64,000 bases of DNA from Cyclobacteriaceae bacterium (GTDB taxonomy: Bacteria; Bacteroidota; Bacteroidia; Cytophagales; Cyclobacteriaceae). The first letter of the stretch is position 1. Every line of letters starts with the position of its first letter. Made by a program: the position numbers and the translations under genes. Below, in pieces: positions 17,426-22,906 of this stretch. Where the stretch lies: positions 1 to 64,000 of the forward strand of contig JALONI010000014.1 of NCBI GenBank assembly GCA_025455015.1. The letters run 5' to 3'. The notes under the pieces were generated by a model. The model had not been told where the DNA came from, did not search any database, and worked only from the letters and a program-made list of their open reading frames with translations.

Positions 17426-18163
17426 TTACATCCGCTTCTGCCGCACCGCTTCATAAATGGCGATGCCTGCCGCCACCGATACATTCAGCGAGGCGATGTG
17501 GCCTTGCATGGGTATCTTCGCCAGTATATCCGCCTCGCGCAGCAAGTCAGGCGAGATTCCATCCTCTTCAGACCCCATCACCACGGCCAGCGGCCCTTTC
17601 ATGTCCACATCGAACAAGAGGTGCTCGGCTTTCTCGGTACACGCAATGACTTGAATGCCGTTTTGCTTTAGCAGCTTTATGGTTTTGCGCAGGTCGCTGA
17701 CACGGCACACGGGCATGTAGCTGAGGGCTCCGGCCGAAGTTTTCACCGCATCGCCTGTGATGGGCGCATTGCCTTTGTCCGCCAGGATAATGCCGGTGAG
17801 CCCTGCGCAGTCGGCTGTGCGTGCCATCGCGCCAAAGTTGCGCACATCGGTTACGCGGTCCACGATCAAAAAAAACGGCTCACGGCCATGGGCATAGGCA
17901 TGATCGATCAGGTCTTCCACCTGCGCATACGTGACGGCCGACAGGAGGCAGATGACGCCCTGGTGGTTTTTGGAGGAGAGCCGGTTGAGTTTTTCCTGGG
18001 GAGTGAACGTGTAGGGCACGTTGTGTTGCTTGGCTGTTTGGATCAACTCTTTGATGAGGTCGTTTGCCAACCCCGTTTGTACGTACACGCGCTCGATGGG
18101 CCGCTGGGCGCGGATGGCCTCCATTACGGCACGGGTGCCAAAAATCATGTCTTTCTTTTCCAT
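17426..18163 (-). CDS. rlmB: 23S rRNA 2'-O-ribose methyltransferase RlmB (TrmH/SpoU family)
   Basis: Methylates a ribose in 23S rRNA domain V (G2251 in E. coli) using S-adenosylmethionine. The 245 residues from ATG 18163 match the normal full length: N-terminal substrate-binding domain starting MIFGTRAVMEAI, then the SPOUT domain with DVRNFGAMARTADC, VVMGSEEDGI and LNVSVAAGIAIYEAVRQ that form the knotted AdoMet site. The reading frame is open upstream without a stop and joins an exported GRAM-like domain. I place the start at 18163 because it gives the family N-terminus and because a promoter (TTG, 20 bases, TATCTTCG) sits seven bases upstream. The fusion is described separately. Confidence 0.88.
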   Translation of the reverse strand: MEKKDMIFGTRAVMEAIRAQRPIERVYVQTGLANDLIKELIQTAKQHNVPYTFTPQEKLNRLSSKNHQGVICLLSAVTYAQVEDLIDHAYAHGREPFFLIVDRVTDVRNFGAMARTADCAGLTGIILADKGNAPITGDAVKTSAGALSYMPVCRVSDLRKTIKLLKQNGIQVIACTEKAEHLLFDVDMKGPLAVVMGSEEDGISPDLLREADILAKIPMQGHIASLNVSVAAGIAIYEAVRQKRM

Positions 18164-18622
18164 GCGGGGGCGAAGATACGGGTATGCCCTCATGATTTCA
18201 ACTGCCCTGCGGATGCTTTTTCTCTTGTCGCCTGCTTTTTTTGAAGCCATGACTATTTTCAGAGTCCTTTCGTTCGTGTCTACCCTAAGGCCTCCGAACA
18301 AAGGCGAGTTTCGCTTCGCACGTACTATTTCTTCGTAGGGTATCACAATCTCCTTGACTAAGTCATTGTACATCTTGTAGCGATTCTTCCCGGATTTTTC
18401 CGGGCGGAACACCAAGTGGGTTTGCGTGAAATAGATGTCTCCCAGAACCGAGAAAGGTGGAACCGCAAATCCGTTGTCCAAAAGGAGTGTGACACCTTCC
18501 CTCTTCATCAACGCGTTTGACACGTCAGGGCTCTGGCCGTTGACAACAAAACTACAAACGAAAAATACCAAAGGCAGCACATGCCTTGTACTAACTATGC
18601 TTGATATAGTCAATACACTCAT
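18164..18622 (-). CDS. Exported GRAM-like domain, reading frame open into rlmB
   Basis: Unnamed 153-residue stretch. Residues 1-30 from ATG 18622 form a signal peptide (hydrophobic core LPLVFFVCSFVV, cleavage near VNG-QSP). The remainder resembles a GRAM/PH-like fold: GDIYFTQTHLVFRPEKSG, a basic segment, EIVIPYEEIVRAKR, RTLKIVMA, and a final amphipathic helix RRAVEIMRAYPYL. The ATG overlaps the stop of the upstream lipoprotein gene by four bases (ATGA), so the two are coupled. No stop codon separates it from rlmB; read through it gives a 398-residue fusion that would carry an RNA methyltransferase out of the cytoplasm, which makes little sense. It is AT-richer than rlmB and aroC, fitting an inserted cassette that lost its own end. 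Function unknown. Confidence 0.55.
18171..18201 (-). promoter_or_regulatory. Predicted promoter of rlmB inside the upstream reading frame
   Basis: On the minus strand: TTG at 18201-18199, 20 bases, TATCTTCG at 18178-18171, one mismatch from TAnnTTTG, then seven bases to the rlmB ATG. The position at the junction with the GRAM-like region suggests it is the ancestral rlmB promoter. Confidence 0.5.
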
Positions 18623-19530
18623 ATACATGCCCAATGGCCGGGATTGGTCAAACATTGCTCCCATTCCAAAAATCCTCCACCAATATTCGATGGGTTGAAA
18701 TCGGTAAAGTAATAGCCCCTTGAGGCGAGGTCATAACCAACTGCTCCTCCATAAACACCACCTACTATCGCACCAACTGCAATCATAGTGCCCCATGCGG
18801 CCGCAGAAATGTAGGCACCGGCAGCAACCGCAGCCGCTCCTCCCGTAACTACAACCGCAACTACAACAACCGCAGCAACCACTGCTGTTACAAAGGCCGA
18901 TACAAGCTTTTTGAACCATCTTTTGCCTTTTCCAGCGCTTTGGGATTCAAGATCGTAGGTCGCATATACCAAATCTACCATTGAATGATCTTCGAAGTCA
19001 GCAAAAGAAATTAGAGCCATTTGCTCTTCCTGAGTTAAAGTGGGTTCGTTTGTTACTCTTGTTCTAAACTCCTGAATGACGCCCTTCATGCGAGCAATAA
19101 CTTCATCAGGCCCCTCCGAAAAATCTGATGAAATCTGTAATCCATTTTCCATATCCGATTTCAATCTCTCTGTGAGGCCGCTTACGGCAACAGAGATGCC
19201 ATTCTCATGTGTTCTTTGGTTACCCGAGAGCTTAGTTCCAATCTGAAGAATCTCTTCACTTATATCTGAAGCAATTTTTTTGCCTTGCTCATCAAGTATT
19301 GGCGAAAGGTATTCTAGTAAGTATCGTTTTTTATCATCGTGCCCAACATATGTTCGAAGAAACATATTGGTTTCAGATCTCCTTAGTAATCCATTAAATG
19401 CTTCCGAATTACGTAAAAGATGAAGACTGATGGATTCCTCATCCTTTAATTCAACAAAAGTCTCGTCACTGCACGAGAACCCCATGGTAATTAGCCAGGC
19501 AAAAAATAGTGTTTTTGCGGTTTTTTTCAT
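18619..19530 (-). CDS. Lipoprotein with glycine-rich hydrophobic C-terminal region, unknown
   Basis: About 303 residues from ATG 19530 (MKKTAKTLFFAWLITMGFSC), a clear lipoprotein signal with Cys at residue 20. Residues about 25-195 are mostly charged and helical (ESISLHLLRNSEAFNGLLRR, ISEEILQIGTKL). A basic hinge, GKGKRWFKKLV, leads into about 70 residues of Ala/Val/Gly with GxxxG-type spacing that could form a membrane hairpin, and the tail ends CLTNPGHWACI with two cysteines. I do not recognise a family. The gene is clearly AT-richer than aroC and rlmB on either side, and its stop overlaps the GRAM-like start. Features of this sort occur in pore-forming or membrane-perturbing proteins, but that is only a guess. 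An upstream ATG at 19551 is also possible. Confidence 0.7.
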   Translation of the reverse strand: MKKTAKTLFFAWLITMGFSCSDETFVELKDEESISLHLLRNSEAFNGLLRRSETNMFLRTYVGHDDKKRYLLEYLSPILDEQGKKIASDISEEILQIGTKLSGNQRTHENGISVAVSGLTERLKSDMENGLQISSDFSEGPDEVIARMKGVIQEFRTRVTNEPTLTQEEQMALISFADFEDHSMVDLVYATYDLESQSAGKGKRWFKKLVSAFVTAVVAAVVVVAVVVTGGAAAVAAGAYISAAAWGTMIAVGAIVGGVYGGAVGYDLASRGYYFTDFNPSNIGGGFLEWEQCLTNPGHWACI

Positions 19531-19573
19531 GTCGATTCGTTTTGTTGACATAAAGTCATAAAAACTCCTTAAA

Positions 19574-20831: not shown

Positions 20832-22133
20832 TTGAAAACCCATCACAAAATAATAAATGGCGACAGCAGACAAATGTCTGACCTGCCGGATGGTTCGATC
20901 CATCTATCGATTACATCTCCCCCCTATTGGCAATTAAAAGACTACGGGACCGAAAATCAAATCGGTTTTCATGACAGCTACGAGAGCTATATCAACAATC
21001 TAAACTTGGTTTGGAAAGAATGCTATCGCGTTCTGCATAGTGGCTGCCGATTATGTGTTAATATTGGTGATCAGTTCGCTCGTGCTGTTTATTATGGACG
21101 CTATAAAGTCATTCCCATTCGAGAAGAAATCATCAAATTCTGCGAGAATATCGGATTTGACTATATGGGCGCCATCATTTGGCAAAAAGTTACCACTTCC
21201 AACACCACGGGCGGAGGCGTTCAAATGGGTTCGTATCCGCATCCGCGGAATGGAATACTGAAATTGGACTATGAGTTCATTTTGGTTTTCAAAAAACTGG
21301 GAGACAGCCCAAAGCCAACTAAAGAGCAAAAAGAACTTTCAAAAATGACTGCTGAAGAATGGAACACTTTCTTCGCAGGCCATTGGAATTTCGCTGGGGC
21401 ACGACAGACCGGACATATTGCAATGTTCCCGGAGGAACTTCCGAGGCGACTAATCAAAATGTTTTCGTTTGTTGGGGAAACCATTCTCGATCCTTTTGCA
21501 GGAAGCGGAACAACGGCACTGGCGGCTAAAAATATGGGCAGAAACTCTGTTGGTTTTGAAATCAATCCAGAGTTTATTCCAGTAATCAAAGAAAAGTTAA
21601 AAGTACACCAGAAAGATCTCCATGGTACAACTTATGAATTCTCACAACAAACACTAGTGATTAAAGACTTTAATGGTGATATTCAAAAACTGCCATACAT
21701 CTTCAAAGATCCCCATGCTCTTGATAAAAAGATTGATGTGAAGAAGCTTCAGTTCGGGTCGAAGATCGACAAAAATAGCGCAACGAGTCGACATGAGTTG
21801 TTTATGGTAAAAGAGGTTATCAGCACAGAAAAAATTCGCTTGAACAACGACTTGATTATTAAACTTATTGGCGTGAAAAGTGACCCTGTTGTTAACGGAA
21901 AAGCAACCACTTTTCTAATCGAAAAGACGAAGGGGAAGAAGGTATTTATGAGATATGATAATGTAAAATACGACAGCGAGAACAACTTGCTCTGTTATCT
22001 CTATCTTGAAAACAAAACATTTCTCAACGCCCACCTAATTAAAAATGGCCTAGCTGTGGTGGATAGCAACACTGATTTTAAATATAAGGAGAAATTCAAT
22101 AAAATTCAGACTGAAGCAAAACAACTCTCATGA
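20832..22133 (+). CDS. Beta-class DNA methyltransferase (probably N4-cytosine) with degenerate SNase-like C-terminal domain
   Basis: Protects DNA from the endonuclease encoded next to it. The 433-residue protein has the catalytic motif TSPPYW (Ser29-Tyr32), typical of N4-cytosine enzymes, placed before the AdoMet motif LDPFAGSGTTAL (Asp220), which is the beta-class order; INGDSRQMSDLP precedes motif IV. After about residue 315 comes a second domain resembling staphylococcal-nuclease OB folds (VFMRYDNVKYDSENNLLCYL, FLNAHLIKNGLAVV, FKYKEKFNKIQTEAK). The nuclease Arg and Asp positions appear replaced, so it is probably a DNA-binding rather than cutting module. Start is TTG at 20832. The gene is distinctly AT-rich compared with aroC, a sign of transfer. 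The restriction gene starts 41 bases downstream. Confidence 0.85.
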   Translation: MKTHHKIINGDSRQMSDLPDGSIHLSITSPPYWQLKDYGTENQIGFHDSYESYINNLNLVWKECYRVLHSGCRLCVNIGDQFARAVYYGRYKVIPIREEIIKFCENIGFDYMGAIIWQKVTTSNTTGGGVQMGSYPHPRNGILKLDYEFILVFKKLGDSPKPTKEQKELSKMTAEEWNTFFAGHWNFAGARQTGHIAMFPEELPRRLIKMFSFVGETILDPFAGSGTTALAAKNMGRNSVGFEINPEFIPVIKEKLKVHQKDLHGTTYEFSQQTLVIKDFNGDIQKLPYIFKDPHALDKKIDVKKLQFGSKIDKNSATSRHELFMVKEVISTEKIRLNNDLIIKLIGVKSDPVVNGKATTFLIEKTKGKKVFMRYDNVKYDSENNLLCYLYLENKTFLNAHLIKNGLAVVDSNTDFKYKEKFNKIQTEAKQLS

Positions 22134-22174
22134 TCCTGTTTCTAAAGTACAAGGGTAAGTAGGTCTTCCGAAAA

Positions 22175-22906
22175 ATGTCGCGGATAGCTTCTAAACAACA
22201 TCAAATGGCCAAAAAAATCACAAAGAAAGTTGCGAAGACATTCGGAAAGAAAGAAAAAGTCCTCAATTATGCGAGCAATACTTATCAATTAACCCGTCCA
22301 AAGAAAGTCGGTGCGGTAATGGCTCTGATACGAGATTGTCAACCAAAATCATTTCAGGAATGGGAAAAATTCTATTTCGAAAAAGCTTTTACTAAAACAA
22401 AAGAGCCAACTAAAGTAACAAAAGAAATTTTGACGGAATTAGGCTTTCGGCTATATGAAAAAATTACCCAGACGGTGATTCCTGAATGGACTGAGGCGTT
22501 TGGTCAAATAACCAAAGACGATTGTGTTGAATTTATATATGAAGTTACTATCCACCGGACGTATGATGGATTTATCAGAGAAAAATCGGTGGTAAATGAT
22601 AATCTTTCAAAGCGTTTTCCGAATGTCCGATTCGAGGAAAGTGAGCCTGAACTCGACCATTCGGGCGATATCGACTACCTCGGTTGGGTTGGCGAACGGG
22701 CCTTTGGCCTGCAGATCAAGCCAATCACGGCTCAAGCTAATTTTGGAAACTATTCGGTAAGCGAAAGAATGAAAAAAAGCTTTGACGAATTTACGGAGAA
22801 CTTTGGAGGCCGGGTGTTTATCATCTTTTGTGAAAAAGAGCGGATCAAAGACGAGGGCCAAGTCATCGTGCAGATTCAGAACGAGATTGAAAGGTTAAGG
22901 AACTAA
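22175..22906 (+). CDS. MjaI-like type II restriction endonuclease
   Basis: Likely cutting partner of the upstream methyltransferase, 243 residues. By overall pattern (KVLNYASNTYQLTRPKKVGAV, CQPKSFQEWEKFYF) I place it in the MjaI restriction family, whose founder cuts CTAG; this is from memory of the family, and the exact site here is not shown. A PD-(D/E)xK-type core is visible: Asp167 in GDIDYLGWVG, then Gln180-Ile-Lys182 in FGLQIKP. The N-terminus is Lys-rich (KKITKKVAKTFGKKEK); an ATG at 22205 is an alternative start. It is AT-rich like its neighbour and has no controller gene. Together they form a complete two-gene restriction-modification system inserted between aroC and the BatA-like gene. 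Confidence 0.75.
   Translation: MSRIASKQHQMAKKITKKVAKTFGKKEKVLNYASNTYQLTRPKKVGAVMALIRDCQPKSFQEWEKFYFEKAFTKTKEPTKVTKEILTELGFRLYEKITQTVIPEWTEAFGQITKDDCVEFIYEVTIHRTYDGFIREKSVVNDNLSKRFPNVRFEESEPELDHSGDIDYLGWVGERAFGLQIKPITAQANFGNYSVSERMKKSFDEFTENFGGRVFIIFCEKERIKDEGQVIVQIQNEIERLRN

What the first reader, a model, noticed from the sequence alone, without database searches (positions are those of the whole stretch)
17426..19530. Two-gene AT-rich cassette fused in frame to rlmB
The sequence shows a lipoprotein gene, a coupled exported GRAM-like domain (ATGA overlap), and then rlmB with no stop codon between. A 398-residue reading of the fusion would begin with a signal peptide and end in a cytoplasmic rRNA methyltransferase, which is topologically odd. 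A promoter and full-length rlmB start sit exactly at the junction, and the cassette is visibly AT-richer than aroC and rlmB. I infer an insertion between aroC and rlmB that lost the stop of its second gene. Either a new exported module or a genuine gene fusion would be of interest.
Basis: partly seen in the sequence, partly recalled or inferred. Interest (0 to 1): 0.62.

Follow-up and report, generated by a model that had tools for sequence, protein, structure and literature searches.

The report
Exported two-gene cassette abutting rlmB
A chromosome rearrangement seems to have joined the tail of a patchily spread two-gene cell-envelope cassette, which looks like a toxin with its protector, to an ordinary ribosome-modifying gene; the in-frame join is probably an accident, while the cassette itself is worth a bench test.

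Summary
rlmB (17426-18163) is intact. Upstream, in frame and without a stop, runs an exported PH/GRAM-like gene (18164-18622), ATGA-overlapped by a lipoprotein gene (18619-19530). The fused frame is unique in the sample: 55 other genomes with a strong RlmB match have shorter frames. In 24 of 29 relatives a different gene sits upstream of rlmB; its homologue here lies on another contig. So a rearrangement most likely placed aroC and the cassette here and clipped the partner's tail; staying in frame is a one-in-three outcome. RlmB is probably made from its own start. A one-base assembly error is not excluded.

The cassette belongs to a real family: a lipoprotein with a glycine-rich hydrophobic C-terminal segment plus an exported PH-fold partner. 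In 390 Cyclobacteriaceae genomes, at E <= 1e-10, 16 of 18 lipoproteins have the partner next to them (8 of 10 not used to build the profile), while 8 of 30 partners stand alone. Tandem partners, displaced lipoprotein tips and interrupted lipoproteins occur. This resembles toxin-immunity genetics. Toxicity is untested.

The parts
17426..18163 (-). rlmB, 245 aa, with its own ATG at 18163
   Evidence: TIGR00186 207.4 bits, cut-off 160.15; conserved start in most same-genus relatives
18164..18622 (-). exported PH/GRAM-like partner gene, 153 codons open, no stop; continues into rlmB
17426..18622 (-). fused open frame of 398 residues
   Evidence: absent from 55 other genomes
18171..18178 (-). TATCTTCG, candidate -7 box of rlmB (TTG at 18199-18201)
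   Evidence: consensus from PMC6847099 and PMC9723704 passages
18619..19530 (-). lipoprotein gene, 303 aa, hydrophobic segment about residues 205-259 with GxxxG motifs, Cys-containing tail
18179..18190 (-). inferred rearrangement breakpoint (approximate)
   Evidence: inference

Best explanation
A lineage-specific rearrangement brought aroC and a two-gene envelope cassette (lipoprotein + exported PH/GRAM-like partner) to just upstream of rlmB and clipped the last codons and stop of the partner gene. The 398-codon frame is a by-product: RlmB is made from its own start at 18163, while ribosomes that translate the partner run on into rlmB and give some exported partner with a useless RlmB tail (inferred). 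The cassette most likely works as a toxin-immunity pair: the lipoprotein, probably displayed on the outer membrane, acts on a neighbour's membrane through its glycine-rich hydrophobic segment, and the exported PH-like protein shields the producer from outside the inner membrane. Shown: anatomy, linkage, orphan and tandem partners, uniqueness of the fusion in the sample. Inferred: toxicity, delivery, start-site use.
For: RlmB frame unique to this genome among 56 with a match at E <= 1e-60. Upstream neighbour of rlmB differs from 24 of 29 relatives and its homologue is on another contig. PH domain model ends at residue 146, before the junction. TATCTTCG box 7 nt before the ATG; related boxes in 16 of 30 rlmB loci, this one included. 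Cassette family: 16 of 18 lipoprotein places with the GRAM-like partner downstream, 8 of 10 among places not in the profile; 8 of 30 partner places alone; four tandem partners and a displaced tip in G134, three partners in G497; 4 of 18 lipoproteins interrupted by a stop, partner open in 3 of these 4.
Against: No toxicity, expression or localisation data. The 20 of 30 partner places used as profile seeds were chosen because they are linked; of the 10 non-seed places only 2 are linked and 8 are alone. Stops in 4 of 18 lipoproteins versus 2 of 30 partners is too small a contrast to prove a bias. Tip and N-part of the lipoprotein correlate with the partner about equally (0.85 and 0.81 on the same 11 pairs), so tip-specific immunity is not shown. 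Two lipoproteins (G452, G603:C208) have another kind of exported neighbour. The promoter has a mismatch at a nearly invariant base and would give an almost leaderless transcript, which is a minority class in flavobacteria.
Confidence: 0.55

Rival explanations
1. Assembly or base-calling error at the junction: a one-base length difference in the short junction stretch would end the partner a few codons into rlmB, an ordinary overlapping gene pair.
For: Of the two other frames one closes 16 nt after the first base of the rlmB ATG, the other after 281 nt. A run of five C lies right before the ATG. The genome is a 154-contig draft.
Against: The frame is open as assembled and the homology to other partners holds in this frame up to the tail. 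No reads were available to me.
Confidence: 0.25
2. The cassette is a non-toxic envelope module: an outer-membrane lipoprotein with a membrane-embedded C-terminal hairpin and a periplasmic PH-like partner that folds, holds or regulates it.
For: Tight linkage with ATGA overlaps; co-inheritance of the pair; no known toxin domain in Pfam, NCBIfam, PHROGs or PADLOC.
Against: Eight of 30 partner places stand alone, partners occur in tandem, lipoprotein tips are displaced, and the distribution is patchy (18 of 390 and 37 of 390 genomes).
Confidence: 0.35
3. A genuine functional fusion: the 398-residue protein is the working product, with RlmB tethered or targeted by the PH-like part.
For: The frame is open and both halves are intact.
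Against: Not seen in 55 other genomes; the signal peptide would send an rRNA enzyme out of the cytoplasm (inference); rlmB keeps its own start and a candidate promoter.
Confidence: 0.04

Closest known systems
SitA/SitI lipoprotein toxins of myxobacteria (PMC5562445, passages)
   Same: Lipoprotein followed by a candidate immunity gene; variable C-termini; several copies per genome
   Different: SitA C-termini are mostly nuclease domains and delivery needs TraAB outer-membrane exchange, reported only in Myxococcales; here the C-terminus is a hydrophobic glycine-rich segment and delivery is unknown
Cdz glycine-zipper proteins of Caulobacter (PMC5380434, passages)
   Same: Hydrophobic GxxxG region, candidate immunity gene next to it
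   Different: CdzC/D are 84-86 aa, exported by an adjacent type I system, with a small membrane protein CdzI; here a 303-aa lipoprotein without such neighbours and with an exported PH-like partner
BSAP toxins of Bacteroidales (PMC12853789, passages)
   Same: Surface lipoproteins of Bacteroidota that attack neighbours' membranes
   Different: BSAPs carry a MACPF domain; none is found here
Tandem and orphan immunity genes of type VII toxins such as EsaG and TsaI (PMC9484751, passages)
   Same: Strings of non-identical partner genes and orphans without the toxin
   Different: Different proteins, secretion route and phylum

Membership tests
RlmB (TIGR00186) | Score above the curated cut-off | tested here: met
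   207.4 bits, cut-off 160.15, residues 157-396 of the fused frame
GRAM domain (PF02893) | Score above the gathering cut-off | tested here: not met
   22.9 bits alone, 23.2 in the fused frame, cut-off 23.6; 13 of 21 family members match at E <= 0.1
GRAM domain (PF02893) | PH-type fold | tested here: met
   model of pLDDT 64 with seven strands and a C-terminal helix; PH and GRAM domains lead the Foldseek list and VIA-align gives Z 12.2 to a PH-like chain and 11.2-11.4 to MTMR GRAM domains
Toxin-immunity pair | Partner gene next to the candidate toxin | tested here: met
   16 of 18 lipoprotein places at E <= 1e-10
Toxin-immunity pair | Orphan or tandem partner genes | tested here: met
   8 of 30 places alone; tandem in G134 and G497
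Toxin-immunity pair | Toxicity relieved by the cognate partner | not testable with these tools
   needs a bench test
SitA | Lipoprotein delivered by TraAB outer-membrane exchange | not tested
   no search for traAB was made
Cdz | Small bacteriocin-like proteins with an adjacent type I secretion pair | tested here: not met
   303-aa lipoprotein between aroC and rlmB, no type I pair adjacent in the window
BSAP | MACPF domain | tested here: not met
   no MACPF match at E <= 1 in this lipoprotein

The most novel reading that the evidence does not exclude
The cassette belongs to an undescribed family of Bacteroidota lipoprotein toxins that disrupt membranes through a C-terminal glycine-rich hairpin with a Cys tail, neutralised by exported PH/GRAM-fold immunity proteins that accumulate as tandem and orphan copies; here an immunity gene has been captured in frame by rlmB.
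Probability: 0.42. Interest if true: 0.7.

Novelty: new variant of a known kind. Interest (0 to 1): 0.42.

Why it matters
If the pair is a toxin with its immunity, it would add a lipoprotein-borne membrane toxin and a PH-fold immunity class to the Bacteroidota. Two searches of the paper library for a GRAM or PH fold together with immunity proteins found no paper (open-licence full texts only). The cassette is two genes of about 1.4 kb and easy to test in laboratory strains. The junction is also a natural case of a gene that has lost its stop against a conserved neighbour.

Tried and rejected
Phage or plasmid origin: lipoprotein tblastn against the phage and plasmid collections, no match at E <= 1e-3; viral contigs, no relative. 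PHROGs and PADLOC, searched with the two window proteins only: nothing for the partner, and only weak matches (best E 0.029 and 0.023) for the lipoprotein. PDB by sequence: no match below E 0.05 for either profile. Lipoprotein structure: mean pLDDT 43, so no fold search was made with it. Tip-versus-partner specificity by distance correlation: strong but hardly better than for the N-part (only the first partner of tandem arrays was used). Phylum-wide search: 19 of 395 genomes, but many of the weaker matches cover only the signal-peptide end of the model and I did not count them as family members. DUF6861: weak match in 2 of 11 lipoproteins (the one that I looked at is under the cut-off), no paper found. 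G047 has a 351-codon RlmB frame; I fetched it but did not resolve what the extension is. The 23 partner matches between E 1e-10 and 1e-3 were not examined.

Full report
Observation. On the minus strand the window holds, in the direction of transcription, aroC, a lipoprotein gene (18619-19530), an exported GRAM-like gene (18164-18622) and rlmB (17426-18163). The lipoprotein stop and the next start overlap as ATGA. The GRAM-like frame has no stop and passes into rlmB, giving 398 codons from ATG 18622. The cassette is AT-richer than its neighbours. The coordinates and main claims of the finding are right.

The rlmB half is ordinary. It scores 207.4 bits against TIGR00186 (cut-off 160.15). It is the only close RlmB among five SpoU-type genes in this genome; the next best match to RlmB has E 1e-20. 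Most same-genus relatives align from its residue 1. A TATCTTCG box ends 7 nt before its ATG, with a TTG 20 nt further up. With the -7 box at -12 to -5 (PMC9723704 and PMC6847099, passages read) the transcript would start about 3 nt before the ATG, almost leaderless; such transcripts are a minority (5.5% in one flavobacterium). One base departs from TAnnTTTG. Boxes of the kinds TAnnTTTG, TAnnTTCG or TAnnTTG lie within 25 nt of the start in 16 of 30 rlmB loci examined, this one included, so the box may be rlmB's own ancestral promoter (inference).

The fusion is unique in the sample. Of 58 genomes searched, 56 have a match to RlmB at E <= 1e-60; the stop-to-stop frame is 434 codons here and 233 to 351 in the 55 others. 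In 24 of 29 relatives the nearest long upstream ORF ends like one ~390-aa exported protein (..RK(S/G/A)R(F/Y/L)), judged by its C-terminus; five have something else. This genome's homologue, 47% identical to one of these, lies on contig C37 among other genes. manC lies on the other side of rlmB in 9 of the 15 wider rlmB loci that I fetched. aroC is the upstream neighbour in 0 of those 15. So the upstream side of rlmB was replaced here, and the breakpoint lies near 18179-18190 (inference).

The lost stop is unremarkable. Aligned partners end in short, unconserved tails. The predicted PH domain ends with helix 130-146, before the junction. Given a breakpoint in this tail, one frame of three stays open through rlmB; the other two close 16 and 281 nt past the first base of its ATG. 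The same calculation shows the chief weakness: a one-base assembly error at the junction could give an ordinary overlap, and I had no reads.

The cassette is the interesting part. The lipoprotein and its partner turned up together at unrelated sites in G058, G064 and G029. In 96 genomes the partner query hit 4, this one included; the lipoprotein query hit the same 4 plus three weak ones. With profiles (A3 of 11 lipoproteins, A5 of 21 partners) over 390 Cyclobacteriaceae genomes, lipoprotein matches at E <= 0.001 occur in 18 genomes and partner matches in 37. At E <= 1e-10 there are 18 lipoprotein places; 16 have the GRAM-like partner downstream, one of them (G000:C120) after an extra ORF. The other two, G452:C229 and G603:C208, are followed by a protein of about 250 aa that looks exported and beta-barrel-like by eye. 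Ten of the 18 were not in A3; 8 of these 10 have the partner, detected by profiles that did not hold those partners (A4; A5 for G577). There are 30 partner places at E <= 1e-10: 22 beside a lipoprotein (for G603:C171 a weak one), 8 alone (G058:C39, G689, G577:C8, G653, G476, G064:2944251, G006, G576). All 20 places that served as A5 seeds had been picked because they are linked; of the 10 others 2 are linked and 8 alone. For G006 only 1.5 kb of flank was read, for the rest about 4 kb upstream. The 23 weaker partner matches were not examined.

Further signs of conflict genes. G134 has four tandem partners, with a displaced lipoprotein tip (model positions 240-287) between the second and third. 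G497 has three partners. G653 has what looks by eye like a tip remnant joined to a lone partner. In-frame stops interrupt 4 of 18 lipoproteins (G008, G067, G000:C120, G565), with the partner open in 3 of these 4; 2 of 30 partner places carry a stop. These numbers are too small to prove a bias. This genome holds three copies: in the window, at C140:80943-82205, and the interrupted one on C120.

Protein anatomy. The lipoprotein has a lipobox by eye (..MGFSC-SDETF; no signal-peptide predictor was on hand), a helical middle in a low-confidence model, hydrophobic windows over residues 205-259 with GxxxG motifs and a short tail with cysteines. Tails fall by eye into classes such as NPGHWAC, LLDWxxCNF and C..QC..C-(S/T)-TG-x-C. 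Distances of lipoprotein tips and partners correlate (r 0.84, 16 pairs); on the same 11 pairs the tip gives 0.85 and the N-part 0.81, so only co-inheritance is shown. Eleven of 15 lipoproteins have an acidic excess at +2..+6 (row values), which resembles the surface export signal of Bacteroidota (PMC5080379, passages); I took no background rate. The partner model has a PH fold at modest confidence (pLDDT 64).

Mechanism. I judge most likely that the lipoprotein is a surface-anchored membrane-active toxin and the partner an exported immunity protein. Orphan and tandem immunity genes are known from other systems (PMC9484751, passages), lipoprotein toxins from SitA (PMC5562445, passages), glycine-zipper killers from Cdz (PMC5380434, passages). 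I file the cassette under none of these; Cdz and BSAP membership fail on defining features. A non-toxic envelope complex remains the main rival for the cassette.

Verdict. The fusion is most likely an accident of rearrangement, or a sequencing error, and is of low interest by itself. Neither cassette protein reaches the cut-off of a curated Pfam or NCBIfam model; across the family 13 of 21 partners match GRAM at E <= 0.1, and the lipoproteins show scattered weak matches only. The cassette family deserves a bench test.

Noticed in passing
20832-22906 (+): Beside aroC lies an AT-rich restriction-modification pair: a DNA methylase (PF01555) with a staphylococcal-nuclease-like domain (PF00565) at its C-terminus, and an MjaI-type endonuclease (PF09568). 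aroC is thus flanked by AT-rich genes on both sides.
   Followed up: partly
L086:4944-6206 (same contig as the window, C140:80943-82205): A second, diverged lipoprotein-partner cassette 61 kb away on the same contig; a third copy with an interrupted lipoprotein is on contig C120 (L164:607-2380).
   Followed up: partly
L084:6284-11053: In G279 a weakly related lipoprotein lies near five tandem small lipoproteins of about 135 aa, an array of another protein family.
   Followed up: no
19527-19559 (-): A 10-codon ORF preceded by GGAG ends in an ATGA overlap with the lipoprotein start (read).
   Followed up: no
L091:358-1572: In G067 the C-terminal part of the lipoprotein and its partner lie in one open frame, so another member of the family has also lost a gene boundary.
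   Followed up: no
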